Shown: piece by piece, positions 4,440 to 38,868 of the stretch
How the letters are laid out: the number at the start of each line of letters is the position of its first letter
How positions within the stretch are numbered: position 1 is the first letter of the stretch
Virus record (IMG/VR): IMGVR_UViG_3300030116_004629
Location: 1-49,403 of that record
DNA from: a virus
Length of the DNA: 49,403 nucleotides
Reading direction: 5' to 3' (one strand)
Notes under the pieces: model-generated
The model's input: the letters and a program-made list of their open reading frames with translations, nothing else
Told to the model about the DNA's origin: nothing
Databases searched by the model: none
Program-made: the position numbers and the translations under genes

Positions 4440-5426
4440 ATGACAAGACAGATGAGACAAGAGGCGTGGGGTTCTTTCGGGGATGACGCGCAAGGAGAAA
4501 CAGCAGAAGAAGTATGCAAGAATGCGGGGTTGGGCTTTACAGCCAACCTTGAGCCGCTTTATGACAAGCGCGGCACTATGCTAACACACAAGCACAGGGG
4601 AGTCTTTAGGGATGATACTAATGATTGTATAGGCGTAGTGGGCAAGTCGTACCATGTGAAGCAGCACGTTGATGTGGCTAACTTAGCCCACGAATTGACA
4701 GGCACAGGGCTGCTTGAGTGGAACAAGGTAGGACAGACCAACAATGGCGCAAGGGCATGGTTTAACTTAGCCCTACCTGATGAGGTAGTCATAAACGGCA
4801 ACGAGCCTATTCAGACCTACATGACGCTTATGAATAGCCATGACGGGTCAAGTGGGATTAGAGTAATTCCTCAGACTTTCAGAATGCAATGTGGCAACCA
4901 ATACAACATGATGATTCGTGACGCGAAGGCGAAAAACGGCCTTTTCGTGGTTCGCCACACTAGCCGCATGGATGAGGCTATTGAGCAGATGAAGCAGGCC
5001 ATTGGCATGACTAATGTTATGATGGATGAGTGGGCAAGACAGGCTCAGGGCATGATGGAAATAGACATGGACATTGGTGAGAGGGTACAGTTTTACTTAG
5101 ACCACCTGCCGATTGTTCAGAAGCCTGAGATGATGAAGGGCGGCAAGGACTACGACAAGAATAACCCCTTCGGGCTTGCTACACGCGGAAAAAACATACT
5201 CGATGTGGTTTTAGGGCTTGAGGAACAGGAACAGAACCAAGTAGGCGGCATGGATGGCACGCTATGGCAGGCCGTGAACGTGATTAGCGACTTCATAGAC
5301 CACGATTGGGTCACTACCAAAGACGGTAAGGTGAATGAAAAGAGGGCCGAGTCTGCGATTGTCGGAACAGGACAGCGCATTAAGGGCAAGGCATGGGAAG
5401 ATGCACTAGCAAGGGTGGTGGCTTAA
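4440..5426 (+). CDS. DUF932 / phage-plasmid-like protein, 328 aa
   Basis: The order of motifs matches the DUF932 family of phage and plasmid proteins: an N-terminal substrate-like region with DTNDCIGVVGKSYHVKQH, a middle part with a gyrating beta pattern (ARAWFNLALPDEVVINGNEP), the conserved NSHDGSSGIRVIPQTFRMQC segment (residues about 133-152) and a helical C-terminus. Members occur widely in phages near replication genes; their biochemical role is not established. It has a strong Shine-Dalgarno and its own promoter, so it is probably made in large amounts early in infection. A structured RNA region follows it. Confidence 0.85.
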   Translation: MTRQMRQEAWGSFGDDAQGETAEEVCKNAGLGFTANLEPLYDKRGTMLTHKHRGVFRDDTNDCIGVVGKSYHVKQHVDVANLAHELTGTGLLEWNKVGQTNNGARAWFNLALPDEVVINGNEPIQTYMTLMNSHDGSSGIRVIPQTFRMQCGNQYNMMIRDAKAKNGLFVVRHTSRMDEAIEQMKQAIGMTNVMMDEWARQAQGMMEIDMDIGERVQFYLDHLPIVQKPEMMKGGKDYDKNNPFGLATRGKNILDVVLGLEEQEQNQVGGMDGTLWQAVNVISDFIDHDWVTTKDGKVNEKRAESAIVGTGQRIKGKAWEDALARVVA

Positions 5427-9392: not shown

Positions 9393-9932
9393 ATGAACAT
9401 ATTTGTATTGAACGAAGACCCTGTATTAGCAGCACAAGATTACTGTGACAAGCACGTACCCAAGATGGTTGTAGAATTGCTACAGCAATGCGGCTCTGCC
9501 GTCATACGCCACGGTGCTACGCCTGACATGATGCCACTTACCAAGAAGGGTACTCCCCTCAAGGGTGGCTACCACAAGCACCCTTGTACCGTGTGGTGCG
9601 GCGACTCACGCAACAATTTCCTATGGGCTGTCGTGCATGGCCTTGCGTTATGTGACGAGTATAGTAAGCGGTTCGGCAAGACTCACTTCTGCGAGACAGG
9701 CTTAGAGCAGTTATTCACTATGTCTCAGATTATACCCGCAGGCAACCTTACGCCTTTCGCTCTTGCTATGCCCGATGAGTATAGACCCGTAGCCTGTCAC
9801 ATTAAAGACGGCTACCTATTCCACGCCACAGGTTCTACTGCTGTTGCAGCGTACAGACGCTACTACCACAGCAAGACGTTTGCCAAGTGGGACAAGGGTA
9901 CTGACACACCCTCATGGTGGGTGGCAGCATGA
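9393..9932 (+). CDS. Conserved virus protein of the MNIF-DP-CDKH family, 179 aa
   Basis: The N-terminus MNIFVLNEDPVLAAQDYCDK, followed by HVPKMVVELLQQ, matches a family common in cyanophages and giant or marine viruses. The second half keeps the pattern HPCTVWCGDSRNNFLW, LCDEYSKRFGKTH, MPDEYR and a final KWDKGTDTPSWW. Some databases attach a DNA-glycosylase-like label to relatives; I cannot confirm that. The conserved Cys, Asp, Lys and His suggest an enzyme. First gene of an operon with its own promoter. Confidence 0.75.
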   Translation: MNIFVLNEDPVLAAQDYCDKHVPKMVVELLQQCGSAVIRHGATPDMMPLTKKGTPLKGGYHKHPCTVWCGDSRNNFLWAVVHGLALCDEYSKRFGKTHFCETGLEQLFTMSQIIPAGNLTPFALAMPDEYRPVACHIKDGYLFHATGSTAVAAYRRYYHSKTFAKWDKGTDTPSWWVAA

Positions 9933-20654: not shown

Positions 20655-22154
20655 ATGGTGGAAGAGACACTTTTAATGGGTAAAGAAGCGAGAAGGAAAC
20701 TTTTACAAGGCATTAACAAAGTAGCAGATGCGGTCAAGGGGACACTCGGCCCAAGTGCTAAAACGGTTATAATACAGCAAGAGGATTCATTTCCCCTCAT
20801 ACTTAACGATGGTGTGAGTGTAGCGAGAGCAGTCAATGACCCCGACCCTTATGTGCAGATGGGTATTGACCTGATTAAGCAGGTAGCAGAACAGGCGCAA
20901 GGTATTTCCGGTGACGGTACTACTACGGCTACTGTTATTGCTCAGGCTCTATGCAACGAGGGCTTCAAGGAGATAGAAGACGGAAAGGACAGGCTTGAAT
21001 TGTTTGAAATGATACAGGAGAAGGTAGACGAGATTATTAGAAATATTGAAGGTCACAGCCAACCCTGCGAAACCGTTGATGATGTTTCTTCGGTGGCTAA
21101 GATTGCCGCTAACAACGACCAAGAGTTAGGTGATTTGATTGCCGATGTTATGTTAAACATAGGGTCGGAAGGTGCGATTGCTCTCAAGCATGGGAGTGGA
21201 TTTGAAACCACCTTTGAGATAAAGGATGGGTTAGAGATACAGTCGGGCGCAGCAAGCCCACACTTCTCACAGGAGATGGCAAACGCCAACGTGCTGATTA
21301 CTACTGACAAGATAAATAACTTTGAAAGTCTTGTTCCGGCATTAGAATTGTCGCTCAAAGAACAGAAAGGGCTGTTGATTGTCTGCGCAGACTACAACGA
21401 GTCTGTGCTTCCTAACTTATTAATTAACGTAGTGCAAGGTAAGATAAACGCCTGCCTTGTCAAACTTCCCTCTATGGGTAAGCAACAGGAAGATTGGGCT
21501 TACGATATTCGTGCTGTGACAGGCGGCAAGGTCTTCAACAAGACTTTAGGCGACAGTCTTACAACGGTTAAAGAACATGAATTGGGATATGCTACGCTAG
21601 TGCAATGCGGCAAGGATTCCTGTGTAGTAGAAACAGACACAGGCATTGACGATGCACACTTAGATGACCTATACCAAAAGGCAGATAACGCAGACCACGA
21701 TTGGGACAAGCAGACTCTAACACGCAGAATTGCGAGACTGACGAAGGGTGTTGCTTCTATTTATGTGGGGGCGACAACCGAGATTGAGATGCTAGAGAAG
21801 AAGGAACGCATTGACGATGCTATTAACGCCGTGAGAGCCGCCATGAGAAACGGTACTATTGCAGGTGGTGGTATACTTCTAAACTACTACGGTATGGATA
21901 GCAAGGATGATTTGATTATGAAGGCTTTCTCAGCCCCCATGAGAACCATAGCCGAGAACGCAGGCATTGACCTACCACCGACTATGCACGTTGAGAGAGG
22001 CTTAGATGCTAGGACAGGCAAGTTAGATGCTGACTTAGTAGCGGTAGGAATTATAGACCCTGTAGATATTACGATTAACTCTATTAGGAGTGCAGTTTCC
22101 ATAGCAAAGTTAGTCTTACTAAGTGATGCTTTGGTGGCTCTGCCACAGAGTTAG
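20655..22154 (+). CDS. groEL: Group I chaperonin (GroEL-like), 499 aa
   Basis: Clear GroEL motifs, all with E. coli-like spacing: LGPSAKTVII (31-40), NDGVSVARAV with D52, GDGTTTATV with D87, and near the end EIEMLEKKERIDDAINAVRA with the catalytic Asp, followed by GTIAGGG. It lacks the C-terminal GGM repeat and is about 50 residues shorter than usual. It is a bacterial-type (Group I) ATP-driven folding cage, unlike the thermosome usual in archaea. The Shine-Dalgarno is AAGGTGAAG. Together with the GroES-like gene it may fold virion or replication proteins. Confidence 0.95.
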   Translation: MVEETLLMGKEARRKLLQGINKVADAVKGTLGPSAKTVIIQQEDSFPLILNDGVSVARAVNDPDPYVQMGIDLIKQVAEQAQGISGDGTTTATVIAQALCNEGFKEIEDGKDRLELFEMIQEKVDEIIRNIEGHSQPCETVDDVSSVAKIAANNDQELGDLIADVMLNIGSEGAIALKHGSGFETTFEIKDGLEIQSGAASPHFSQEMANANVLITTDKINNFESLVPALELSLKEQKGLLIVCADYNESVLPNLLINVVQGKINACLVKLPSMGKQQEDWAYDIRAVTGGKVFNKTLGDSLTTVKEHELGYATLVQCGKDSCVVETDTGIDDAHLDDLYQKADNADHDWDKQTLTRRIARLTKGVASIYVGATTEIEMLEKKERIDDAINAVRAAMRNGTIAGGGILLNYYGMDSKDDLIMKAFSAPMRTIAENAGIDLPPTMHVERGLDARTGKLDADLVAVGIIDPVDITINSIRSAVSIAKLVLLSDALVALPQS

Positions 22155-26570: not shown

Positions 26571-26574
26571 TGCG

Positions 26575-26590
26575 TAGGTTTATAGGCGGA
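26575..26590 (+). promoter_or_regulatory. Promoter TAGGTTTATAGGCGGA, copy 4
   Basis: TTTATA at 26579-26584, directly after the PolB stop and 26.5 nt before the ATG at 26608, predicting a leaderless mRNA. Confidence 0.8.
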
Positions 26591-26607
26591 AATGGAGAAC
26601 GAGTATT

Positions 26608-26943
26608 ATGACGAGAAGTAGGAAGAGTAGTGGTAAGGCGACAGCCAAGCAGAACCAACAGAGTATAGCGCAGATGCAAGGCGTGATTAACGAATTGGTA
26701 AACGCTGTGACGAATGACATGGGCAGACTTAACGGTATTATGTATGCCTTGCTTAAGGATTTAGACAAACTCAAGGAAGACAATTGCCCCCATTGTGGAC
26801 AAGTCCTATTTGAGCCACAGTTAGATTTACTACCACCGTCTACACATTGCCCGTCTTGTGGTGAGGCATTGAATACTGATGAGCAAAAGACCATAGATGA
26901 TTTTGTCAATTGGGATGAAGGAAAGAGTAGTGAGGAAGAGTGA
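26608..26943 (+). CDS. Zinc-ribbon protein, 111 aa
   Basis: Basic N-terminus (MTRSRKSSGKATAKQNQQSI), then a helical part and a C-terminal zinc ribbon with CPHCGQ and CPSCGEAL 22 residues apart, followed by an acidic tail. Possibly a DNA- or protein-binding accessory factor for the nuclease that follows; it is coupled to it by a GTGA overlap. Confidence 0.75.
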   Translation: MTRSRKSSGKATAKQNQQSIAQMQGVINELVNAVTNDMGRLNGIMYALLKDLDKLKEDNCPHCGQVLFEPQLDLLPPSTHCPSCGEALNTDEQKTIDDFVNWDEGKSSEEE

Positions 26944-27794
26944 GAGCAACAGATGAGCAGTCAAAGGCTTCTTCTTATAACCCTAATATTTCCGAGATAT
27001 TACGGGTAAGTAAGTCTTCGTTTATGACATACTTGATGTGTCCTAGACAATTCTATTGGCGTTATGTTGCAGACATTCCCTCGCCCCCACCAACGGAAGA
27101 GGCTATTAGAGGCAGTATAATACACGCCGCTATGGAACATGGTATACTAGGCGAGCCTAAAGACATGGAGAGATTCTTGATAGCAGAGGGGATGGAAGAT
27201 GATGAGGGTGCGTTGTCATTGTCGGAGATGCTACATTCTATTGCTAACGATTTAGGCTCTTTTGACGTAGTGGAAGCAGAGGTTAAGCACCAAGTCTATG
27301 AGGAATTGACTACCGCTAGTGGTATGAAGCCTGTGATATGGGTAGGGATGATAGACGGTGTGCTTAGACACCCACAAGGCGGATTGATACTTGTAGAGTT
27401 AAAGACAGGTAAAATGAATATGGGTAAGTTAGGCAGAACGAGAAAAGAATTGGTTTATTATAACCGTCTTTTAAAGTTAATGGGTTATGATGAAGTGACA
27501 CACTTCCTTTACCTGTGTCCCGACTACAAGGCAGTAGACGGAGATAAACTACTTGATGAATATAAGAAGCGCGGTAAAACCATGTGGCTTCCTGAAAATA
27601 GCGGTTGGGCGTTATTAGAGCCTGTTATGACTCGCTCTATTAATGCCTTTGAGAACAATTTATATGACACTATAGACTCTTTGAAACTCCAAGATTACCC
27701 GATGAATTGGAACGAATATTTTTGTCCGGTTTGGTGTGATTTTCACTTAAATTGTGAGGCAGAATTAACAGGAGAGATGGAAGCATGGCAGTAA
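26940..27794 (+). CDS. Cas4/RecB-like nuclease with iron-sulphur cysteines, 284 aa
   Basis: The N-terminal SKSSFMTYLMCPRQFYWRYV (24-43) with C34, RGSIIHAAMEHG (57-68), MIDGVL, then LILVELKTGK are the motifs of PD-(D/E)XK RecB/Cas4 nucleases (H, D, ExK). Three C-terminal cysteines, at about 262, 266 and 272 (CPVWCDFHLNC), complete the four-cysteine Fe-S cluster with C34. Expected 5'-end or 3'-end resection exonuclease. It is next to replication and recombination genes, with no CRISPR array. GTG start. Confidence 0.85.
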   Translation: MRATDEQSKASSYNPNISEILRVSKSSFMTYLMCPRQFYWRYVADIPSPPPTEEAIRGSIIHAAMEHGILGEPKDMERFLIAEGMEDDEGALSLSEMLHSIANDLGSFDVVEAEVKHQVYEELTTASGMKPVIWVGMIDGVLRHPQGGLILVELKTGKMNMGKLGRTRKELVYYNRLLKLMGYDEVTHFLYLCPDYKAVDGDKLLDEYKKRGKTMWLPENSGWALLEPVMTRSINAFENNLYDTIDSLKLQDYPMNWNEYFCPVWCDFHLNCEAELTGEMEAWQ

Positions 27795-28072: not shown

Positions 28073-29071
28073 ATGTTATTGACTTTCCCTAGGGAGATTG
28101 GGCTACGCCGTAATTTATGCGACAGTCGTAATATCTTTGACGATTATATTACACGCATAAACGGCAAGGCTTCGGTGTATACTTCTCTCTATTCCTTTGA
28201 GCGCAGACACCCTACACGCTCTTGGAAGTATGACCCCGACTCAGTAGTGATGGATAGGGCGTGGTGGGATTTTGACACTACGCCTGAGCATGACATAGAG
28301 CAGGTCAAGCAAGATGTGTATACTTTACTCTCTAAATTACAGGGAGATGTTAGAGTGGTATTCACAGGTAGAGGATTCCACGTTCACCAAATGTTCTCTG
28401 AGCCTGTCAAGGGTCAGGCTATAGGAAGACACATTATACGCTATGAGAATGACGTTGCTAAGGGTCTAGTCACACTTGATGGTGTGGGCAACCCACAGAA
28501 ACTAACAAGAGTACCCGACACATATAATGTCACTCGCAAGAAGTGGGCTGTTAATATTGACAAAGACGCTTTCTTTAGTGACCCTTTCAACTATGAGATT
28601 CCTACTAAGCCGGAGACTTCGCTGCTTAGATTTGACCCATTCAGAGGTGAAAAATTAGCCTCTAATTTTAGTATTACTAAATGGATTGCTACCCACCCCG
28701 TAAACGAGAAGCAGGTAGTAAACGTATTCGATGGAGAAATAGGTACGTTAGACCAAGTGCCTATTCCTCCCTGTCTTGACAAGGCTATAAGACATGAGAA
28801 CCCACGACACCACGTTAGGGTCGCTCTTGTGACACACTTAGCAGATAACCTGCGGTGGTTTGCTTCACCCTCTTCCCTCACCCGTGATGAGAAGATGGAT
28901 ATAAGCACTAAGATTTGCGCATTCATAGAGACTTTAGGTTGGAGAGATTACAACCCAAGCACTACAAGATTCCATGTTAATAGCATGATGGATTACGAAC
29001 ACACTCCTTCAACGGCTTGGTACAAAGCAAGAAATATTTGCACAGGGCCGTGTTGGTTGCACGATGAATAA
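28073..29071 (+). CDS. priS: DNA primase, PriS fused to a PriL-like tail, 332 aa
   Basis: Archaeo-eukaryotic primase motifs: WWDFD with catalytic D66 and D68, FTGRGFHVH (97-105) and TRVPDTYNV. After about residue 225 comes a region (PPCLDKAI, ALVTHLADNL, CAFIETLGWRDYN, TRFHVNSMMDY, CTGPC) that resembles the C-terminal iron-sulphur domain of the large primase subunit PriL, with four cysteines. It would make RNA or DNA primers alone. Start with GGTGAAAG Shine-Dalgarno. Confidence 0.85.
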   Translation: MLLTFPREIGLRRNLCDSRNIFDDYITRINGKASVYTSLYSFERRHPTRSWKYDPDSVVMDRAWWDFDTTPEHDIEQVKQDVYTLLSKLQGDVRVVFTGRGFHVHQMFSEPVKGQAIGRHIIRYENDVAKGLVTLDGVGNPQKLTRVPDTYNVTRKKWAVNIDKDAFFSDPFNYEIPTKPETSLLRFDPFRGEKLASNFSITKWIATHPVNEKQVVNVFDGEIGTLDQVPIPPCLDKAIRHENPRHHVRVALVTHLADNLRWFASPSSLTRDEKMDISTKICAFIETLGWRDYNPSTTRFHVNSMMDYEHTPSTAWYKARNICTGPCWLHDE

Positions 29072-29087
29072 ATGGAGGTTATAATAA

Positions 29088-29228
29088 ATGACGATGACAA
29101 AACAGCAGAAGAGATGCCCCATGTGCGCAAGCACTAAGGGATTCATTGAAGTGCATGGTTCTATGGCTTGTCTAAATTGCCACACCAAGATTGTTTCTTG
29201 TTGTGGCGATGACGGCTGTATAATTTAA
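29088..29228 (+). CDS. Double zinc-site microprotein, 46 aa
   Basis: CPMC and CLNC 15 residues apart form one ribbon; SCCGDDGC at the C-terminus could bind a second metal. A GGAGG precedes the start. No family recognised. Its end overlaps the TATA-like region of the next gene. Confidence 0.65.
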   Translation: MTMTKQQKRCPMCASTKGFIEVHGSMACLNCHTKIVSCCGDDGCII

Positions 29229-29249: not shown

Positions 29250-29918
29250 ATGTTAGATTATAGTATATCTCTTATTGAGAAGCCGATAGCGAAAGAAATC
29301 ATAGTAGCAAACCACTACACGCATAAGTGGTCTTCTTGTCGTTATGCTTTGGGTTTATTCTTGGGTGATGAATTACATGGGGTAGCGATTTATGGTTTTC
29401 CTGTGGGTAGGCAAGTGGTGAAATCAATTTCCCCACAATTAGAAAACCAAGATGTATTAGAATTGACAAGGCTTTGGCTCAGAGATGAAGCACCAAAGAA
29501 TAGTGAAAGTTTCTTCATTGGGCAGACTTTCAAATGGCTCAAGGAAAATACAGACACTAAGGTTCTTATCAGTTATGCAGACCCTATGGCAGACCACTTG
29601 GGTATCATATACCAAGCAACCAATTGGCTTTATCAAGGTAATAATACCATGTTAGTTAAGGGTTATTTACATAAGATTAACGGAGAGTGGATGCACCCAA
29701 GAAGTGCGGTGGCAAAGTACGGTACGGTTAAGACTTCTAAACTGCTTGAAATAGACCCTGAGTACGAAAGAAAGGAATTGAAGAAGAAGCACAGGTACAT
29801 CTATATCTTGACAGACAAGCGAGAAAAGAGAAAGATACTTGCGACACTAAAGCATCCTGTTTTACCTTACCCTAAAAACAATAAGAATTGTGAATGGCAG
29901 TCCTTAAATAGACCCTAA
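29250..29918 (+). CDS. Mom-like DNA-modification protein (GNAT-type), 222 aa
   Basis: Conserved pattern of the phage Mu Mom family: NHYTHKWSSCRYALGLFLGD (21-40), HGVAIYGFPVGRQVV, LELTRLWLRDEAPKNSESFF (70-89), then LISYADPMADHLGIIYQATN (106-125) and WLYQG. Mom converts adenine to a carbamoylmethyl-type derivative that protects phage DNA from restriction. If this homologue does the same, the virion DNA may be hypermodified. The C-terminus is lysine-rich. Family recognised by motif memory, not search. Confidence 0.7.
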   Translation: MLDYSISLIEKPIAKEIIVANHYTHKWSSCRYALGLFLGDELHGVAIYGFPVGRQVVKSISPQLENQDVLELTRLWLRDEAPKNSESFFIGQTFKWLKENTDTKVLISYADPMADHLGIIYQATNWLYQGNNTMLVKGYLHKINGEWMHPRSAVAKYGTVKTSKLLEIDPEYERKELKKKHRYIYILTDKREKRKILATLKHPVLPYPKNNKNCEWQSLNRP

Positions 29919-29935
29919 AGCAAACCACTACTAAG

Positions 29936-30652
29936 ATGTTAGTGATAGACGACAGAGAGAATGAGAAGGTTCAAAATAAGATACTTCTGCGCATGGGTCT
30001 TTGGCCCGATAACCCAAAGGGGTTAGCAAAGGTAGCAAGACTCAAGAGCGCAGACTATGTTATAGGGCAATGGGGTATAGAGGCTAAAGAAATCAATGAC
30101 TTGTATAGGTCTATCATGGGTTTCGGAAGAACGAGGACTATAGTAGACCAATTGCGTGACTTAGAGGAAAACTTTGACAAGCCCTTCCTCATAGTGTACG
30201 GTACTAAACTAAAGCCCTATGTGCAGGGGAGGCCAAACGCACAGCGCATGGCTATAGAAATGGCTAGGATGGTAAAGGTGATAGAGAAATTCAAACTTAC
30301 CTTCTATCAACGCTTCCCTAAGATAAAATTCATGCAGTTAGATAGCATGGATGCTTTCGTAGATTATTTAGTAGTCAATCACACTCAATTATCTGTCAAT
30401 GGGCAATCGGGCGTGGCTAACATTCCTGACTTTGTGAAGAAAGCAGGTCAGGAAAAAAAACAAGATGGTCGCGTCAAAGTATTAACAAGTATACCGGGTA
30501 TAACACCTGCTATGGCAGTAGATTTGCTACAAAAATTTGGCAGCCTTCCACAAATACTTCACAGCAGACGCACTCAGAAAGACCTTATGGAAATCAATGG
30601 CATTGGTAGAACTAAAGCGAAAAAAATCCTTGATTTGAGAACAAAGTTTTAA
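29936..30652 (+). CDS. XPF/ERCC4-type nuclease with helix-hairpin-helix, 238 aa
   Basis: IDDREN (4-9), ADYVIGQWGIEAKEINDLYRS (39-59) with the GDxV...ERKxxxD-like motif, where Arg is replaced by Ala (EAK). The C-terminal SIPGITPAMAVDLLQKFGSL and GIGRTKAKKILDL are two helix-hairpin-helix DNA-binding units. Members (XPF, Hef, Mus81) cut branched or flap DNA. Probable recombination or packaging-intermediate nuclease. It ends tail to tail with the hub gene; their stops share TTAA. Confidence 0.85.
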   Translation: MLVIDDRENEKVQNKILLRMGLWPDNPKGLAKVARLKSADYVIGQWGIEAKEINDLYRSIMGFGRTRTIVDQLRDLEENFDKPFLIVYGTKLKPYVQGRPNAQRMAIEMARMVKVIEKFKLTFYQRFPKIKFMQLDSMDAFVDYLVVNHTQLSVNGQSGVANIPDFVKKAGQEKKQDGRVKVLTSIPGITPAMAVDLLQKFGSLPQILHSRRTQKDLMEINGIGRTKAKKILDLRTKF

Positions 30653-33600
30653 CGATAAGGCAAAAACACATTGCTTCTGTTGTCTGCGTTAAACGCCGCA
30701 CGCTTAAAGTTAATGTCCATGTTTGTCACGGATAATGTAGAGTAATTTGCTGAGTCATTTCCTATTCCGGGTGTCCTACTAAATGTAAAGACTAAAGTAT
30801 TGCCGCTTGTGCCTGCCCCCGACAATGATGTTGTCGAAGATAATTGCATATTTGCTTTCTTAGTACCTGTAGGAACAGAAAGTGTTTCTGAAAACTCTGC
30901 GCCTGTCTCAAGACATTTAGCGTGTATTTTTAACAGGGCCGCCCTATCAGTATTTGCAGAGGAAGGCAGTTTAACATCGGCCATAATATTTATTTCATCG
31001 CTTATAGCATCTTTTGGTGTTTTAATTTCTACTTCTACTTGATGCTCTATTTCTTTCTTGCTAAAGGCTATTTCTCCCGCACCTACTCCTTCATCTTTTC
31101 CTTTGCCGGGTAGGTCAAACCCGTTGCCGTTGCTTGTTGCTGAACCCTGTGTAGGGTGAACTCTAAGTGGGCCTGTCATACCACGCATAGAAGAAGGGGT
31201 AGTAGACGTTTTTGTTTGCCCTAAAATGTTATTGGCATACTGCGCTGTGAATTCACTTCCACCACCTATTAGATTCTTCATTATAGCCATGTAAGTACCC
31301 CTGTCAAACGAATTCATGTTTATAGAATCAGGACTAAAAGAGCCGCCGCTACCACCGCTACCTCCATCAGCCTCAGTCCAATTATTATTCACAGGGTCGC
31401 CCGGTGAATACTCACTACCCGGCTCAGTAGTTAGATTATCTTGTGGTGAGGGTGCTATAGCAGAATTATTACCACCACTACTTGTCGTGGGGTTGGGTAG
31501 TTTTGGGGGCGCAAAGATGTAATCCATAATACCTTTACTGCTTGTAGATTCGTCTTCGCTTAGTCTTAGTAGCACACGCTCTTTACCCATTTCTACTTGC
31601 CAATCTACGTCAGTCACAACCATAGTCAGGTTGTCAATATCAAGCCCCGCGTCTGTGTATTTAACAAACGTACCGGGTACATAATTTAAGTCGTCTACAA
31701 TATGTAATGCGGGTGCATACCACAACGACCTATGTGCGCCCATACCTCCTTTCAAACTCGGATAACTTCTACAGCCTAATGGGAAAATAGATTTGTTATT
31801 ATATTGTCCGTTAGTAATCATAAGACTTATTTCACTATCGCTTTCTGCTGTAGCACCACCGATTTGTGTTTGTCCGTTTGTAAGAATAGTATACACTCCG
31901 CTTGATTGAGCATTTATATCTCCACATCTTGTCCTAAGAAGGTCACGACAATAATCAGCGTTAAAAGAAATTACAATTTTGCCTGATGAATGATAAGAGG
32001 AAGGAACATCAATCTCGTAGAAACCGTTATGCTTGCATTCCACAGAAGTATAATGGTTGTTAGAAGATATGTAGCCATTTAGGGTGACAGAACCGCTTGC
32101 AGATACTTTGTCGTAGCCTGCATCAATAAGATATACTTGAAAAATTGCGCTATCAATATCTGTAGTTTTATCTGCATCAGCAAGAGTTTTTAGAGCAACT
32201 ACTACACGTAGTTTTTCTCCTGTGTCGGCACTTACTTTTGGTATGTCTTTGCCTACGTGGACTACCTGTACCGCATAAGAAACTGACCTTGCGCCATAAG
32301 TAGTGTAGTTATCATTGTGCGCTACTGTACCTGTATTTATATCGCTGTCTCCGTACCTTGTGTGCATAGTGCTACTTGTGACTGTATTACCCATGTTGCC
32401 GTCAAGCCCGCTTACCATGCCGGGGAAAATAACACCGCCCGTACCCTGTATTGTCCAACACCACGCTGTGTTTGCACTATCATCACCATCACCCTGAGAG
32501 GCTACTTGTGCGTCTGCTATGTAGCCGTATTTTCCACCGTCTAGCATTACATCTTCGTCTTGCGGTGCAAAGAGAGGCAACGGCTCTATTTGTAGGCTAA
32601 TTGGGTTTTTCTTTCTTGAGTTATATTCTTGCTCTGCCAATCCCAAAGCCTCTACTCTGCTTATTACATTATCATGCTCGATTATTTTCCACGTAGTAGT
32701 ATCTCCTATCGCGGGCGAGGGGAAATCAACGAATTGCTTGCCGTTATCAAACAAGCATCTGACATACTCTACTCTTTCTTTTTGAGACATAGCAAAATCA
32801 GTCACATTTACGTTGTTTCTAGTAAAACTATAACCGCTATTATACTTGGGCCTAAACTCAAGCCTGTTGTCTCTACCAACTAACCAAGAGAAAGATGTAA
32901 ACAAAGAATTGTTAAAGCCGACTCCGCCCGCTTTTTGTGTATCAACCACGGTTCTCATCAAAGTCTTGCTGTTAGTCTCAAGCACACTACCGTAAGAGTC
33001 TTGTTCGCTGTTGGTGTTGTATGTAGTCATTTTATCTGTAATGGGTATGTTATTTATATCAAACATATTTGTTATCTTAGTTTTGGCAAGCCAATTCTCC
33101 ATTATTCCCATGTTCCACAAGGCTCTCATTTTGTCAGAGTTATAGAAAGTACCGCTATTTAGATTTAGATATTTACCGTCTATTTTCATCATTAATCTGT
33201 AGGCGTATTCGTTGGCTACAGAATTGTATAGTGTCAAAACAGGCCATACTGATTCGTCTATGTTGGTTTTTATATGTGGGTGCGCAGTACCACCGGAAGA
33301 CACAAAGGCTCTCATTTGGTCTACTAATGCTGACTCTATTCCGCTTTGTGTCCACACGTTATCTGTAGTCGCTATTGTCACAGAATCTAGCATTACATTA
33401 AATAATTGCTTAGGTATTTTTAGGTTATGGCCGGTAGCCCACCCGTCTGTTATTTCATCAGCAGTCAAACCGGAGTCTCTAACTCGCAAACCGCTTGTTA
33501 GTCCCTCTGAGTTTTCTTCTGTGTTTAGAGCCTTCTCAAATGAGTAATAGATTACTCTTTCTATGTGTAGTACGGTTTCACTAACTACTTTTTTAACTCT

Positions 33601-36600
33601 ATAGTAGTGGTCTTGCGCATCTCCGGTTCTCCAAGAATTACCAACGCCTCTAACTAGAGGCTTAGATGTGTTTTGGACATACGCGCCTTTCTTTACGCCA
33701 TCAGAGATAAACGTAGCCCCGGATTTAGTAATTACAAAGTGTTGGTCGTTTTCTGCGGGCGTTGTGACTGTGACGCTTGAAGCAGTTATGTCACTTGCTA
33801 TCTTACCGTTCCATTGGAAGAACCACTCACTTCTGTTTTCCGTTTCTATTTTAGAGCCTAGTAATCTTCCTATGCCGTTGTCGTCAAAGATAGTAGTATC
33901 TAGTGGTTCTAACCAAAACTCTCCTTTGTTAAGACCATCTGCTAAAGAAGTCTTGCCCGATACTAACTTGTTTAGGTTAGTGTGTTTGTGGTAATCGTTG
34001 TCTGTCGTAAGAGAAGTAGAAGCGGCGTTTCTGTAGTAAGAATCTATCAACACCGGGTCGCCAACACCTACTGCGTAGTAATCTCCCAAGTCTGTCTGCC
34101 CACCACCCTCTTGATTAACCATACCTTTGTTAGCAATAGTATTAAGGTTAAAGAATTTGCTTGTATCAACAACCATAAGCGCACCTCCTTTGTTTTCCCA
34201 ATCTTGATATTGTGCGGGGGCAACATCAGAACCCGTAGTCTTAGCGAAAAAGTGCTTTTCTACTGTTCCGCTTGCTACGGGGCTTGCAGAAAGTGTGGTT
34301 TCTATTCCAAACCCTACAGGGCTGTTGCCCGTTATACCTACTTTGTATACTCCATCTACTGTACCAAAATTTATTAAACCAACATAGTCTCCTACAGACA
34401 GGCCGTGGTTAGCATCGGCTATATAGATGTAGGACTTACCACTAGCAGTAGTAATGCTAACATCATTACCCGCAACGGCAATCATGTTGTCATAGTCTAA
34501 AGGTTTTGAATATGCGCCTCCTGTAGAGGGGTCGTTTGTAGAATCCAAAGTCCACAAGTCATAATCGTCATTCATTTTTAGTGTAGTAAAATTCTTGTAG
34601 TTTCCGCTTTCATCTACTTGGTCGTCAAATTGAATTTGTAGGCTATAATTGTCTGTCACGGGAGATTTCAGACCAAAGTTTTTCTTTCTCAATCCGCCGT
34701 CTGCATCTGCTGTGCCATCGTTTCTCATGTCTGCCCACAAAAGCCACAAGTGTTTGTAAGCGTCACGGTTTTGTATAACGTGTATTTGTGTAGGAACAGC
34801 ACCAAAAGAGCCTGCGCTACTCCAAGCATTAACGGTAAGGGGGTGTCTAAGGGCTACATATTTGCATCCTCCCATCCACCATTTACTACCGTCATAATAC
34901 TTACATCTGTAGATAAAGAAGTCTCTAAGATTTTGCTGTGCCTCAAAGGTTAGTGCTGCCTGTGCTTGGTCTAATACTGCCACACCCGCGTTAGGAATAG
35001 CGTTGTATGTAGCCTGTGTTATCTCAATATCTGTAGCCCCGGCATCTACTTGGGCAACCAAATCAAAAGACCTTTGTGGAGTGTATTGTATCTGCGCAAA
35101 GTGGTATCTAAAGTATAGAGAGTGTGGTAAATCTTGCATCCACTTAGCGTGGACAGGTCTTTCTTTTATGCTTTCAGTATGTGAAGCGGGAGTAGGGGAA
35201 GTAATAATCATTTTTCTTTCTTTACTCCAAGACAATTGTTGGTTTGTACCTCCCCAATAAGAAGAATTTAATAGCCCTTCTTTCAAATCAAAATCGCCTA
35301 TTGTCCCATCTGTCCAACCGTCAGGTAGGGGCGTATAGGTTTGCACTTGCCATAGGAAACGTTGTCTTTTGTCAGCAGCAAGTGGGTTGCCGTGGTAGTT
35401 AATTACCTTTCTAACAGTCTTGGCTATATGTCTGCCTCTTATTGCCTTTTTAGCCCCTGCGCTTGTGGCTAAATTAGTGCTTGTTTCTGTATTGCTGATA
35501 ACAAACCCGTCACCGGGGTTTATGGGGAAGGTAGTGTCTCCGCTTTCTGTTGAGAAAAAGAATGTTAGATAGTCTGTGCTTGCTTGCTGTGCGTATTCAA
35601 ACTCTGCATCGAAATCTGAGGCTATTGCTGTCACCCTTAGAGTGACAAAGCAGAAATGCCCATCGCCCGATGATGTTTCTTTAAAGGCAAGCCTACACTT
35701 AATAACGTCATCTATGGCATATCCATGCCCACCATTTATTACCGTGGCTACTACAGTATCAGTAGTGCCTCCCGTAAATTTTAACTTAATAACTAAGTTA
35801 TTACCTGTTCCGCTTGCGTTTGTCTCGTTAGTAATAATGTTATCGTTGCCGTTGGTAGGCATAGAGCCATCGCCGGGGTCATAAGAATCCGGTATTTGTC
35901 CATCTACCCACGGCAAAGAGCAATGATATACACCATCACCGTTGGGTGATTGCGCCACAAGGTCATCGTAGTCACCACCTACCAAATTATCTAATGTTTG
36001 TGTACCTGCACCCCAACCTTGCTTTTTAACAGTTTGAAGAGCAAGACCGGAAGTAGGGTAGGATTGTATACCATCGTTGCTTTTACTATCAGCGTTATTT
36101 ATTCTATCTGTGTTAAACCAATTGTCTAACAAAGTTTCGTTTGCGCCCGTAGCCCTGTAGCCCTTGCCCGGATTGGTAATTGTGACTTTGCCTATGTTGC
36201 CGTAATACCAAGAAGACCTTGATTGATTTACAAAGGGGATATTTTGTGCATTAAGACTATAACTTGGTGTTATTCCTTCCCATTCTGCTGTTGCAGTTTC
36301 CCCTTCCCAATGTGGGTCTGAACCGGGGTTAGCGGTGTTTGGATTTTCGGGGGCAGGCATACTAATCGTACCCTTGCTTACTTTTTCCCCATCAACAGTA
36401 GTGTAATAACCGTTTGCTACAGTATAGCCCCACCCGTGATTTGTCATTCTTATACCCGATATAGAAGCACGCCCGTTTTCGTAGGTAGCGGGGTGATTCG
36501 CAATAAAATCAGCATAATTATTCCAATGCTGTACGTTGCTTACGGGGTCAGGGAAATTCCAAAACTCAAACTCAGGATAATCGTGCGGAATAGACGGGCC

Positions 36601-38868
36601 TACATATTTACCTACATAGCATAGGTTAGAGTATTCGTCTGTCCAATTTAGTTGGCCGCTACCTGTACCGATTGCTACAGTTAGCACTTCATAGGGGTCG
36701 GTAGCACTATAAGTCACTATTTCTCCCGCGCTGTTAATGCTGTGGTGTGCCGTTATAGCCACAGTAGTACCATCTAATGCGGCTCTACCGGAATAATTAA
36801 GGGTTATATTTCCACTAGAACCCATGTTGGGGTTGCCTGACAAAACCAAACGAAGTCCGGTGTTGTCCTTGTAAAAATAATCAATACCCATGCCTTCGTA
36901 GTCTTCCCAAATACTATTAGGGCCAAAGGAATCTTCATTGTTATACATCTGTATAGGCATACCCGAACCTAACTGTGTTCTTTGGTCTGCTATGTTCTCG
37001 TAATCATTAGAAAACTCTCTGCCTATCTTGCTTGTGAATTGTTTTAGGACAGACGTACCCATGTCCATGACCTCCATGAGTCCTTGTGCATCGTAAGCCC
37101 AATACGCTTGTTGATTCTCAGTAGATTTGTCCTTGTTTTGCCCTAACTCCCACAACGGTATTTGCTTTTCCATTGCTGTTAAAGTATCTGTTGCGTTTAT
37201 GCTAATTACTCTACCTCTTCTTTTTTGATTTATGTTTATACTAGAAACAACGCCTCTCCATATTGGTCTGTCAATATGTGGCACATCAACGTAGCCTGTT
37301 CTACCCCCACCTGCGAAGAGAATTAAGCCCCAATCGTTAAGTTTGTTGCCTCTCATTACGCTTGTAAAATTGTGAGCGTAATCTGTCGTGTTAAATCCGT
37401 AGTCATCTATACTGTCGTAATCATCAGCATCGTCAATTAATTCTATCTGACAATTGCTGAAACCATTGATAGTAGTTTGCATTTTCATGTTAGTCAAAGG
37501 AGGAATGTCTCTTTCCGTAGGGTCGTCTGTTAGGGGTCTATACAACGCCGCCCTGTCTAGTAGCAGCGTAGAAGATACGTTGTTGCTTCCGCTTGTTGGG
37601 TGCATAAAAATCTGCCACCCGTACATATCTTCTGCTTTGATATTAGAGCCTGTAAAGGATTGGTTAGCAAGTATCTTAGTGCCATCCCTGTATACTTCAA
37701 ATTTTTGAGTGTCGTAGTTTAGATGCACATCAACATCTAACCAAGAGTCGTTATTGTTGTAAGCCAACCGAGTAGAAGAGTTTTCATATAGCAGGGGACA
37801 AGTATCATAAGTAGAGCCTAAAGCCAAATCAAATGAAACAACGGGATTTCCTGTTAATCCGTTTTCAAAAGAGCCTAGTGCGGGTGATGATGTGCTACTG
37901 TAGCCCGCCTTTATTGTGACTTTGGGTGTGACTTTACCTGCGCCGTTAAAAGAACGGACAGCCAACCTAAATGTAAGTATGTCATGCGTGTCTCTTGAAT
38001 GTAAATCACCGTCATAATAAATTGTAGGTAGGTCAGGCGTACTGTCGCTACCCGTTCTGTTGTATTGCTGCACGCACAGAAAAGGCATACCCGAAGGAGA
38101 CTCTAAGGGCGCGAAAATATTTTTTGGCCTGCCGTTGCTAATACCTGCATCAGTATACAAGTGGGTTTCACCCATCCATCTACCTGCTAGGTGCGCTCTG
38201 CGAACCATTGTCAGAGTAGAAGTGTTTCCGTTGATACCACTACCGCTACCTTCCATAGTAGCAAGCCTAACCCATGAGTTTTTACCTGCTGTGCCTGCTT
38301 TGTAGGTAGTGTTGTCCCCATAACCCGTCATACTCTGACGGCCAAACGAAGAATCTATATCGCCTGTAGGTATGACATATCTTCCTAAAGTATTATGCCC
38401 GTTGCATATAATTTGTGCGGCATCGCCGGGTTGTGGGTGTGAGTTTGTTCTCGGAAATGTCCTAAAAAAGTTAGTGTTTGTATGCCCATCAGGATATTGT
38501 AGTTTTGCCCTGCCCATTTGTTTAGCAGAATAGTTTCTATTACCGTCATAAGAAAGCCATTCGAAATTACCTTTGTTGTGGAGAAATCTCATAGTGTCAG
38601 GCGCAAACCCATATGGTTGCGTGGCCGCATTTGCCGCACCATAAGCACTTTGAATTGTCAATCTATCGTAATAAGACCATCTAAAACGAGGGTTAAGAGT
38701 AGCCTCTCCGTTTAGTGGGTTGCCGAAATGTGTATAAGCGTGCGTGTATACACCCGTAAAAGTATTATCAGGGCTATTGAAATCGCTAGGCACGGCTCTT
38801 GCACCGTTAAAGTCATCGTAGTAGCCCACTAACCATGCGCCGTACTTGTCTTTGACTGCTCTTACCAT
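30649..38868 (-). CDS. Giant tail hub/receptor protein, 2739 aa
   Basis: The middle part (QTTINGFSNCQIELIDDADD, RPIWRGVVSSININQKRRGR) and the C-terminal part (AQEYNSRKKNPISLQIEPL-like, GLDIDNLTMVVTDVDWQVEM) resemble phage baseplate hub proteins (gp27/gp44 type), here split by very long insertions. The N-terminal ~450 residues are LamG-like beta (FEVYRDGTKILANQSF). Repeats of the form IxxITNPGxGY occur near residues 810, 895 and 1050. Position next to the tape measure and the size suggest a fused hub, spike and receptor-binding protein. AGGTG precedes the start. Confidence 0.7.
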   Translation of the reverse strand: MVRAVKDKYGAWLVGYYDDFNGARAVPSDFNSPDNTFTGVYTHAYTHFGNPLNGEATLNPRFRWSYYDRLTIQSAYGAANAATQPYGFAPDTMRFLHNKGNFEWLSYDGNRNYSAKQMGRAKLQYPDGHTNTNFFRTFPRTNSHPQPGDAAQIICNGHNTLGRYVIPTGDIDSSFGRQSMTGYGDNTTYKAGTAGKNSWVRLATMEGSGSGINGNTSTLTMVRRAHLAGRWMGETHLYTDAGISNGRPKNIFAPLESPSGMPFLCVQQYNRTGSDSTPDLPTIYYDGDLHSRDTHDILTFRLAVRSFNGAGKVTPKVTIKAGYSSTSSPALGSFENGLTGNPVVSFDLALGSTYDTCPLLYENSSTRLAYNNNDSWLDVDVHLNYDTQKFEVYRDGTKILANQSFTGSNIKAEDMYGWQIFMHPTSGSNNVSSTLLLDRAALYRPLTDDPTERDIPPLTNMKMQTTINGFSNCQIELIDDADDYDSIDDYGFNTTDYAHNFTSVMRGNKLNDWGLILFAGGGRTGYVDVPHIDRPIWRGVVSSININQKRRGRVISINATDTLTAMEKQIPLWELGQNKDKSTENQQAYWAYDAQGLMEVMDMGTSVLKQFTSKIGREFSNDYENIADQRTQLGSGMPIQMYNNEDSFGPNSIWEDYEGMGIDYFYKDNTGLRLVLSGNPNMGSSGNITLNYSGRAALDGTTVAITAHHSINSAGEIVTYSATDPYEVLTVAIGTGSGQLNWTDEYSNLCYVGKYVGPSIPHDYPEFEFWNFPDPVSNVQHWNNYADFIANHPATYENGRASISGIRMTNHGWGYTVANGYYTTVDGEKVSKGTISMPAPENPNTANPGSDPHWEGETATAEWEGITPSYSLNAQNIPFVNQSRSSWYYGNIGKVTITNPGKGYRATGANETLLDNWFNTDRINNADSKSNDGIQSYPTSGLALQTVKKQGWGAGTQTLDNLVGGDYDDLVAQSPNGDGVYHCSLPWVDGQIPDSYDPGDGSMPTNGNDNIITNETNASGTGNNLVIKLKFTGGTTDTVVATVINGGHGYAIDDVIKCRLAFKETSSGDGHFCFVTLRVTAIASDFDAEFEYAQQASTDYLTFFFSTESGDTTFPINPGDGFVISNTETSTNLATSAGAKKAIRGRHIAKTVRKVINYHGNPLAADKRQRFLWQVQTYTPLPDGWTDGTIGDFDLKEGLLNSSYWGGTNQQLSWSKERKMIITSPTPASHTESIKERPVHAKWMQDLPHSLYFRYHFAQIQYTPQRSFDLVAQVDAGATDIEITQATYNAIPNAGVAVLDQAQAALTFEAQQNLRDFFIYRCKYYDGSKWWMGGCKYVALRHPLTVNAWSSAGSFGAVPTQIHVIQNRDAYKHLWLLWADMRNDGTADADGGLRKKNFGLKSPVTDNYSLQIQFDDQVDESGNYKNFTTLKMNDDYDLWTLDSTNDPSTGGAYSKPLDYDNMIAVAGNDVSITTASGKSYIYIADANHGLSVGDYVGLINFGTVDGVYKVGITGNSPVGFGIETTLSASPVASGTVEKHFFAKTTGSDVAPAQYQDWENKGGALMVVDTSKFFNLNTIANKGMVNQEGGGQTDLGDYYAVGVGDPVLIDSYYRNAASTSLTTDNDYHKHTNLNKLVSGKTSLADGLNKGEFWLEPLDTTIFDDNGIGRLLGSKIETENRSEWFFQWNGKIASDITASSVTVTTPAENDQHFVITKSGATFISDGVKKGAYVQNTSKPLVRGVGNSWRTGDAQDHYYRVKKVVSETVLHIERVIYYSFEKALNTEENSEGLTSGLRVRDSGLTADEITDGWATGHNLKIPKQLFNVMLDSVTIATTDNVWTQSGIESALVDQMRAFVSSGGTAHPHIKTNIDESVWPVLTLYNSVANEYAYRLMMKIDGKYLNLNSGTFYNSDKMRALWNMGIMENWLAKTKITNMFDINNIPITDKMTTYNTNSEQDSYGSVLETNSKTLMRTVVDTQKAGGVGFNNSLFTSFSWLVGRDNRLEFRPKYNSGYSFTRNNVNVTDFAMSQKERVEYVRCLFDNGKQFVDFPSPAIGDTTTWKIIEHDNVISRVEALGLAEQEYNSRKKNPISLQIEPLPLFAPQDEDVMLDGGKYGYIADAQVASQGDGDDSANTAWCWTIQGTGGVIFPGMVSGLDGNMGNTVTSSTMHTRYGDSDINTGTVAHNDNYTTYGARSVSYAVQVVHVGKDIPKVSADTGEKLRVVVALKTLADADKTTDIDSAIFQVYLIDAGYDKVSASGSVTLNGYISSNNHYTSVECKHNGFYEIDVPSSYHSSGKIVISFNADYCRDLLRTRCGDINAQSSGVYTILTNGQTQIGGATAESDSEISLMITNGQYNNKSIFPLGCRSYPSLKGGMGAHRSLWYAPALHIVDDLNYVPGTFVKYTDAGLDIDNLTMVVTDVDWQVEMGKERVLLRLSEDESTSSKGIMDYIFAPPKLPNPTTSSGGNNSAIAPSPQDNLTTEPGSEYSPGDPVNNNWTEADGGSGGSGGSFSPDSINMNSFDRGTYMAIMKNLIGGGSEFTAQYANNILGQTKTSTTPSSMRGMTGPLRVHPTQGSATSNGNGFDLPGKGKDEGVGAGEIAFSKKEIEHQVEVEIKTPKDAISDEINIMADVKLPSSANTDRAALLKIHAKCLETGAEFSETLSVPTGTKKANMQLSSTTSLSGAGTSGNTLVFTFSRTPGIGNDSANYSTLSVTNMDINFKRAAFNADNRSNVFLPYR

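What the first reader, a model, noticed from the sequence alone, without database searches (positions are those of the whole stretch)
29250..29918. Mom-like enzyme: candidate DNA hypermodification in an archaeal virus
The YAD...GH-GIIYQATNW signature is that of Mu Mom relatives. Mom adenine modification is known for phage Mu; an archaeal tailed virus with it would extend anti-restriction by momylation to archaea.
Basis: partly seen in the sequence, partly recalled or inferred. Interest (0 to 1): 0.7.

Follow-up and report, generated by a model that had tools for sequence, protein, structure and literature searches.

The report
Mom DNA-modifying gene in archaeal virus
A marine virus that probably infects archaea carries a gene, acquired from bacteriophages, for a Mom-type enzyme that most likely masks adenines in the virus's DNA from host restriction enzymes; the enzyme family is known, but its presence in tailed archaeal viruses and the way it moves between them are new as far as I could find.

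Summary
Window 29250-29918 (+) encodes a 222-aa Mom protein: Pfam Mom E 1.7e-57, PHROG 'Mom-like' E 2.3e-63, and a predicted structure that matches phage Mu Mom (8bv8) far better than any other GNAT (Z 20.7 against 12.8). Mu's catalytic S124 aligns with S87, invariant in the alignment. The gene lies in the replication module of a tailed virus with an archaeal-type replisome (RFC-S, PolB, AEP-like primase, ERCC4 nuclease, GroEL), magrovirus-like; the host is inferred, not shown.

In two related viruses a nearly identical mom (88-95% aa) sits in another slot, after PolB; viruses 92-94% identical differ by its presence. (2) The closest non-archaeal Mom genes are in bacteriophages (Polaribacter phage, 69%). 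A second archaeal virus carries a Mom from a different clade, so there were at least two acquisitions. (3) The same slots hold DNA methyltransferases and an SspD-like protein in other viruses. (4) These viruses show extreme restriction-site purging (window: AGCT, GATC, CCAG all zero).

Best reading: a mobile anti-restriction gene. Modification of virion DNA is untested. Mom-like genes were already noted in Charybdis elements, one clade of which integrates in Poseidoniales. New member of a known family in a new setting.

The parts
29250..29918 (+). mom: Mom-family GNAT, 222 aa; S87 aligns with Mu catalytic S124; H22, E71, R74, D111, Y121 and N125 invariant in 18 homologues
29088..29228 (+). small CxxC zinc-ribbon protein (46 aa) just upstream of mom; belongs to the virus backbone (also in the mom-less junction of L009 and in other kin), no match to Mu Com
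28073..29071 (+). archaeo-eukaryotic primase-like protein, left edge of the slot that holds mom
   Evidence: AEP / prim-pol folds, Foldseek E 1.1e-4; conserved in kin
29936..30652 (+). ERCC4-type nuclease with helix-hairpin-helix, right edge of the slot that holds mom
26571..26607 (+). PolB / zinc-protein junction: empty here; the slot occupied by mom in L003, L005 and L068 and by an SspD-like gene in L065 and L067
24327..26570 (+). family B DNA polymerase; best E-values among isolates are haloarchaeal tailed viruses
18161..19117 (+). replication factor C small subunit, archaeal type (2chg E 5.7e-29; T4 gp44 only 1e-10)
20655..22154 (+). GroEL-type chaperonin, as reported for Aoguangviridae
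   Evidence: PMC10768690
23152..24021 (+). putative sliding clamp (weak profile match only)
   Evidence: E 0.0028; not confirmed by profile search
26940..27794 (+). PD-(D/E)XK (RecB-like) nuclease

Best explanation
The gene encodes a Mom-type GNAT that modifies adenine bases (probably at N6, by analogy with Mu Mom) in the virus's own replicating DNA, so that the host's restriction enzymes no longer cut it. It is an exchangeable anti-restriction cassette: it came from bacteriophages and sits in one of a few insertion slots in the replication module of a magrovirus-like tailed archaeal virus, where other viruses of the group carry DNA methyltransferases or an SspD-like DNA-sulfur-modification homologue. 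SHOWN by sequence or computation: family membership, fold, conserved catalytic serine, slot swapping, presence/absence between near-identical viruses, transfer between archaeal viruses, at least two separate acquisitions, severe restriction-site purging. INFERRED: enzymatic activity, chemical identity of the modification, that it acts on viral DNA and confers protection, and the archaeal (probably Poseidoniales) host.
For: Mom family by profile and structure: AlphaFold model pLDDT 86.4, Foldseek rank 1 is 8bv8 'phage Mu protein Mom inactive mutant S124A' at E 1.2e-15, next GNAT 3.8e-5; VIA Z 20.7 over 190 residues against 12.8 for the next. Mu S124 = S87 here, invariant. Slots: Prim-ERCC4 holds mom here and an N6/N4 DNA methyltransferase in L086; PolB-Zn holds mom in L003, L005 and L068 and an SspD-like protein in L065 and L067; Nuc-Prim holds methyltransferases in L086 and Dam in L106. 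Mobility: window and L005 mom agree at 80% of third codon positions where backbone genes agree at 36-50%; L003 and L112 are 92-94% identical but only L003 has mom; empty sites read directly. Phylogeny: (single archaeal clade rejected, p-AU 6e-89). Restriction pressure: 0 AGCT, GATC and CCAG in the window against 246, 140 and 344 expected; AGCT is zero in every related archaeal-virus locus listed, while bacteriophage loci carrying mom have near-normal AGCT.
Against: No activity data. Mom-bearing viruses still lack AGCT and GATC sites, so Mom has not replaced site purging (either it came recently or it covers other sites). Only 5 of 76 viral records examined (including the window) carry Mom, so it is dispensable. 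No Com-like regulator was found. The host is inferred from gene content only: no tRNA was found, no spacer test was possible, and clamp and MCM-like assignments were not confirmed.
Confidence: 0.78

Rival explanations
1. The enzyme is a DNA modifier of the Mom family, but its product is not the Mu modification (another acyl or amide group, or another base), or its role is something other than anti-restriction, for example marking virus DNA so that a viral nuclease spares it.
For: Family-wide chemistry is known for few members; jumbo-phage Mom domains fused to nucleases are thought to spare modified phage DNA while attacking other DNA (PMC7824862). Here mom lies beside nuclease genes (ERCC4 type, PD-(D/E)XK).
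Against: Those nucleases are backbone genes present in nearly all mom-less relatives, so no pairing with mom is seen. Catalytic residues match Mu Mom.
Confidence: 0.15
2. The virus infects bacteria, not archaea, so the gene is an ordinary phage mom.
For: No direct host link; GroEL is of bacterial type; the closest Mom genes outside the group are in bacteriophages.
Against: Archaeal-type RFC-S, PolB with best E-values in haloarchaeal viruses, AEP-like primase fold, two oppositely transcribed gene clusters and GroEL as described for Aoguangviridae (PMC10768690). Three backbone proteins have no match in 50,697 phage records. Complete loss of palindromes is described for haloarchaeal viruses (PMC7230728).
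Confidence: 0.07
3. The gene is a metagenome assembly chimera: a phage mom stitched into an archaeal virus contig.
For: Its closest named relatives are bacteriophages and its position differs between related contigs.
Against: The same arrangement is in a second contig (L002, 99.97% over 20.7 kb). The archaeal-virus mom genes form their own clade (100/99) and lack AGCT, which P12002L and L192 mom contain 5 and 4 times.
Confidence: 0.02

Closest known systems
Phage Mu Mom (PDB 8bv8; Pfam PF25680)
   Same: Same family and fold over the full length, catalytic serine and 18 other residues conserved
   Different: About 26% identical; no N-terminal extension; no Com homologue found; sits in the replication module of a probable archaeal virus rather than at the end of a transposable phage
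Mom-like protein of Polaribacter phage P12002L (NC_028924 gp53)
   Same: 69% identical over 97% of the protein, same length; there it sits next to a DNA methyltransferase gene
   Different: Bacteriophage; keeps AGCT sites in the gene (5 copies) and has 27% G+C against 39% here
MOM-like genes of Charybdis elements (PMC12324425)
   Same: Mom-like genes in the accessory module of marine elements, one clade of which integrates in Poseidoniales; that module also holds methyltransferases and PAPS-reductase-like genes, the same kinds as found in the slots here
DNA methyltransferases in variable regions of HF1-group haloviruses (PMC7230728)
   Same: Tailed archaeal viruses with exchangeable DNA-modification genes and complete loss of palindromic sites
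   Different: Methyltransferases, not Mom

Membership tests
Mom family (PF25680 / PHROG 1384) | Full-length profile match above the curated cut-off | tested here: met
   194.8 bits against cut-off 27.1, profile positions 2-202 of 202; PHROG E 2.3e-63
Mom family (PF25680 / PHROG 1384) | GNAT-like fold of Mu Mom | tested here: met
   Foldseek E 1.2e-15, TM 0.71; VIA Z 20.7, rmsd 3.4 over 190 residues, next GNAT 12.8
Mom family (PF25680 / PHROG 1384) | Catalytic serine (Mu S124; S124A is the inactive mutant crystallised) | tested here: met
   8bv8 has NSEA where Mu has NSES; this serine aligns with S87, invariant in 18 sequences
Mom family (PF25680 / PHROG 1384) | Modifies adenine in DNA | not testable with these tools
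   Needs mass spectrometry, SMRT or nanopore data on virion DNA or on DNA from an expression host
Mu com-mom operon | Com zinc-finger regulator overlapping the start of mom | tested here: not met
   No Zn_ribbon_Com (PF10122) match at E <= 1 in the window, L003, L005 or L068; the small zinc ribbon at 29088-29228 is a backbone gene also present without mom. The gene is filed as Mom, not as a Mu-type operon.
Magrovirus-like tailed archaeal virus | Own archaeal-type replisome (PolB, RFC-S, AEP primase, clamp, MCM) | tested here: inconclusive
   PolB, RFC-S and primase fold supported; clamp only weakly (not); MCM-like gene not confirmed
Magrovirus-like tailed archaeal virus | GroEL and opposite replication and structural gene clusters | tested here: met
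   GroEL; replication genes on +, tail tape-measure and other structural genes on -; compare PMC10768690
Magrovirus-like tailed archaeal virus | Phylogeny with classified Magrovirales | not testable with these tools
   Reference accessions PP497040, ON649702 and OR863078 are not held
Magrovirus-like tailed archaeal virus | Infects Poseidoniales | not testable with these tools
   No host genome could be searched by name; no tRNAs found

The most novel reading that the evidence does not exclude
Marine archaeal tailed viruses draw on a mobile pool of DNA-modification genes (Mom, methyltransferases, SspD-like) that move in and out of a few fixed slots in the replication module and cross from bacteriophages into archaeal viruses repeatedly. 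They use these together with near-total purging of restriction sites, so that some archaeal virus genomes carry Mom-type hypermodified adenine.
Probability: 0.6. Interest if true: 0.7.

Novelty: new member of a known kind. Interest (0 to 1): 0.55.

Why it matters
It carries a hypermodifying anti-restriction enzyme, studied mainly in bacteriophage Mu, into tailed viruses of archaea, and shows the gene crossing the bacterial/archaeal virus boundary at least twice and then spreading among archaeal viruses. The same viruses record, by missing words, which sites their uncultured hosts probably cut. That makes the restriction arsenal of abundant marine archaea readable from sequence, and gives a testable prediction: Mom-carrying virions should show modified adenines in long-read data.

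Tried and rejected
Chimera: rejected (second contig, AGCT-free mom genes, own clade). Upstream zinc ribbon as a Com homologue: rejected. Broken mom in L005/L009: the gap is a run of ten N, not a frameshift. Archaeal Mom in a Methanobrevibacter bin (L183): the neighbours are phage genes for bacterial hosts (peptidoglycan-amidase-like protein, gyrase-like subunits, NAD-type ligase), so probably a misbinned bacteriophage; no other of 152 genomes of that phylum has Mom. Confirming clamp and MCM by profile against PDB: no useful match. PADLOC: no match for Mom. Host by tRNA: none. Link between Dam and tolerance of GATC: L106 has Dam and normal GATC, but L046, L072 and L099 also have GATC without a detected Dam, D12 or N6/N4 methyltransferase, so it stays an anecdote. 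Original papers on Mu Mom biochemistry (gkaa319) and Poseidoniales viruses (PMC11706807) are not held.

Full report
WHAT IS THERE. The ORF at 29250-29918 (+) is intact, 222 aa. It is a Mom protein by every test available: Pfam Mom E 1.7e-57 over residues 4-209, PHROG 1384 'Mom-like DNA modification protein' E 2.3e-63, and Mu Mom (PDB 8bv8) as the only credible PDB sequence match (E 1.8e-19). An AlphaFold model from a 17-sequence alignment (pLDDT 86.4) finds 8bv8 first (Foldseek E 1.2e-15, next GNAT 3.8e-5; VIA Z 20.7 over 190 residues against 12.8 for the next entry). The PDB entry is titled 'inactive mutant S124A'; comparing its sequence with wild-type Mu shows which serine that is, and it aligns with S87 here, invariant in 18 homologues together with H22, E71, R74, D111, Y121, N125 and others. 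The roles of residues other than the serine are not tested here.

WHERE IT SITS. On the + strand the window carries RFC small subunit, GroEL, a putative clamp, PolB, a zinc protein, a PD-(D/E)XK nuclease, a primase-like protein, a 46-aa zinc ribbon, mom and an ERCC4 nuclease. Tail and other structural genes run on the - strand. RFC-S is closest to archaeal proteins, PolB has its best E-values in haloarchaeal tailed viruses, and the primase model matches AEP/prim-pol folds (moderate). GroEL and two opposite gene clusters are described for the Poseidoniales-associated Aoguangviridae (PMC10768690). I therefore read the window as a magrovirus-like tailed archaeal virus. The host is inference: the classified exemplars are not held and no tRNA or spacer link was available.

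THE GENE MOVES. A scan with PolB brought 69 loci. In those that span the region the backbone order is nearly invariant. Mom is found in 4 of 75 related records besides the window; one of the four (L041/L002) is nearly the window itself. In the window lineage it lies between the zinc ribbon and the ERCC4 gene. In L003 and L005/L009 a nearly identical mom lies directly after PolB or just downstream of it, and L009 shows the window's slot empty, with about 36 bp between the zinc ribbon and ERCC4 genes. Third codon positions of window and L005 mom agree at 80% (first part) while backbone genes agree at 36-50%: mom passed between these viruses long after their backbones split. L003 and L112 are 92-94% identical over about 7.6 kb and differ by mom. 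In L005 a copy of the sequence that ends PolB in L003 (AGGTGGTTATAGA) stands just before mom although L005's own PolB ends about 100 bp upstream, which suggests that the gene came from an L003-like virus with a scrap of its flank.

WHERE IT CAME FROM. The three mom genes form one clade (100/99) next to Polaribacter phage P12002L and other viral contigs, some of them about 200 kb (92/88). L068, another virus of the same archaeal group, carries a different Mom (33% identical to the window's) that groups with Mom of Lactococcus, Aeromonas and Elizabethkingia phages; a single archaeal clade is rejected (p-AU 6e-89). So Mom entered this virus group at least twice. Archaeal-virus mom genes lack AGCT, which P12002L and L192 mom have 5 and 4 times, consistent with residence in a host that cuts AGCT.

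SLOT MATES. Inserts over 500 bp occur at three junctions: PolB-Zn (spanned in 62 loci), Nuc-Prim (57) and Prim-ERCC4 (52). Occupants: Mom (window, L003, L068, and in two pieces L005/L009), a PAPS-reductase-like protein that matches SspD, a DNA phosphorothioation component, at E 3e-12 in PADLOC (L065, L067), DNA N6/N4 methyltransferases (L086) and Dam (L106). One further insert (L074) is uncharacterised. Nearly all of the large inserts are thus DNA-modification genes. Charybdis elements, one clade of which integrates in Poseidoniales, are reported to carry the same three kinds of accessory gene (PMC12324425).

THE PRESSURE. The window has 0 AGCT, 0 GATC and 0 CCAG/CTGG where shuffles give 246, 140 and 344 counts on both strands; asymmetric words such as GTAAC and CACTG are missing too. 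AGCT is zero in every related archaeal-virus locus listed, and other tetramers are zero lineage by lineage, while four of the five bacteriophage loci tested as controls show little or nothing of the kind. Haloarchaeal HF1-group viruses show the same phenomenon, explained as avoidance of restriction (PMC7230728); MGIIA methylation at CGCG and GGTAG has been reported (PMC9516812). The viruses therefore appear to face many restriction systems, which is the setting in which a broad base-modifier would pay. Mom has not removed the need for purging: mom-carrying viruses still lack AGCT and GATC.

MECHANISM. By analogy with Mu Mom (named 'methylcarbamoylase' in the PDB), the enzyme most likely adds a small group to adenine in viral DNA so that restriction enzymes fail to cut. 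The chemistry, the sequence context and the protection are inferred; the genetic behaviour of the gene is shown.

KNOWN OR NEW. Mom is a known and common phage family (at least 590 IMG/VR stretches). I found no paper in the held library that reports Mom in tailed archaeal viruses; the main paper on Poseidoniales viruses is not held, so priority cannot be claimed. New member of a known kind, in a new setting and with clear evidence of recurrent cross-domain transfer.

Noticed in passing
window 1-49403; L038-L113: Complete absence of many short words: window lacks AGCT, GATC, CCAG, GTAAC, CACTG, GGACC, GCTCC, CGACG and CGTCC; AGCT is zero in all related archaeal-virus loci listed, and others lack GTAC, CTAG, CGCG, ACGT, TCGA, GGCC, GCGC or CCGG lineage by lineage. 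A possible readout of the host's restriction sites.
   Followed up: partly
L065 10683-11504; L067 3317-4138: PAPS-reductase-like / SspD-like gene with an upstream 95-aa ORF in the PolB-Zn slot of two archaeal viruses: candidate DNA sulfur modification or decoy.
   Followed up: partly
L086 7109-10888: Three DNA methyltransferase-like genes in two slots of one archaeal virus.
   Followed up: no
L106 13954-14550: Dam-family gene in a virus that, unlike most kin, keeps normal GATC numbers (114 seen, 137 expected); three other GATC-keeping loci have no detected Dam.
   Followed up: partly
L005 9880-10010: A short CxxC-containing ORF and a duplicate of the sequence that ends PolB in L003 stand between PolB and mom, perhaps a scar of how mom arrived.
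   Followed up: no
L183 (CACYVR010000001.1): Mom in a contig binned as Methanobrevibacter, but the neighbours look like a bacteriophage; probable misbinning in a reference genome.
   Followed up: yes
L204-L271 (e.g. L208, L212, L216): Many T4-like marine phage contigs carry two or three Mom paralogues, often side by side and near PolB and the clamp loader.
   Followed up: no
window 9393-9932 and 4440-5426: Pyrimidine-dimer-glycosylase-like protein (just under cut-off) and a DUF932 protein in the early region.
   Followed up: no
window 30649-38868 (-): A 2739-aa ORF without Pfam match at the end of the structural cluster.
   Followed up: no
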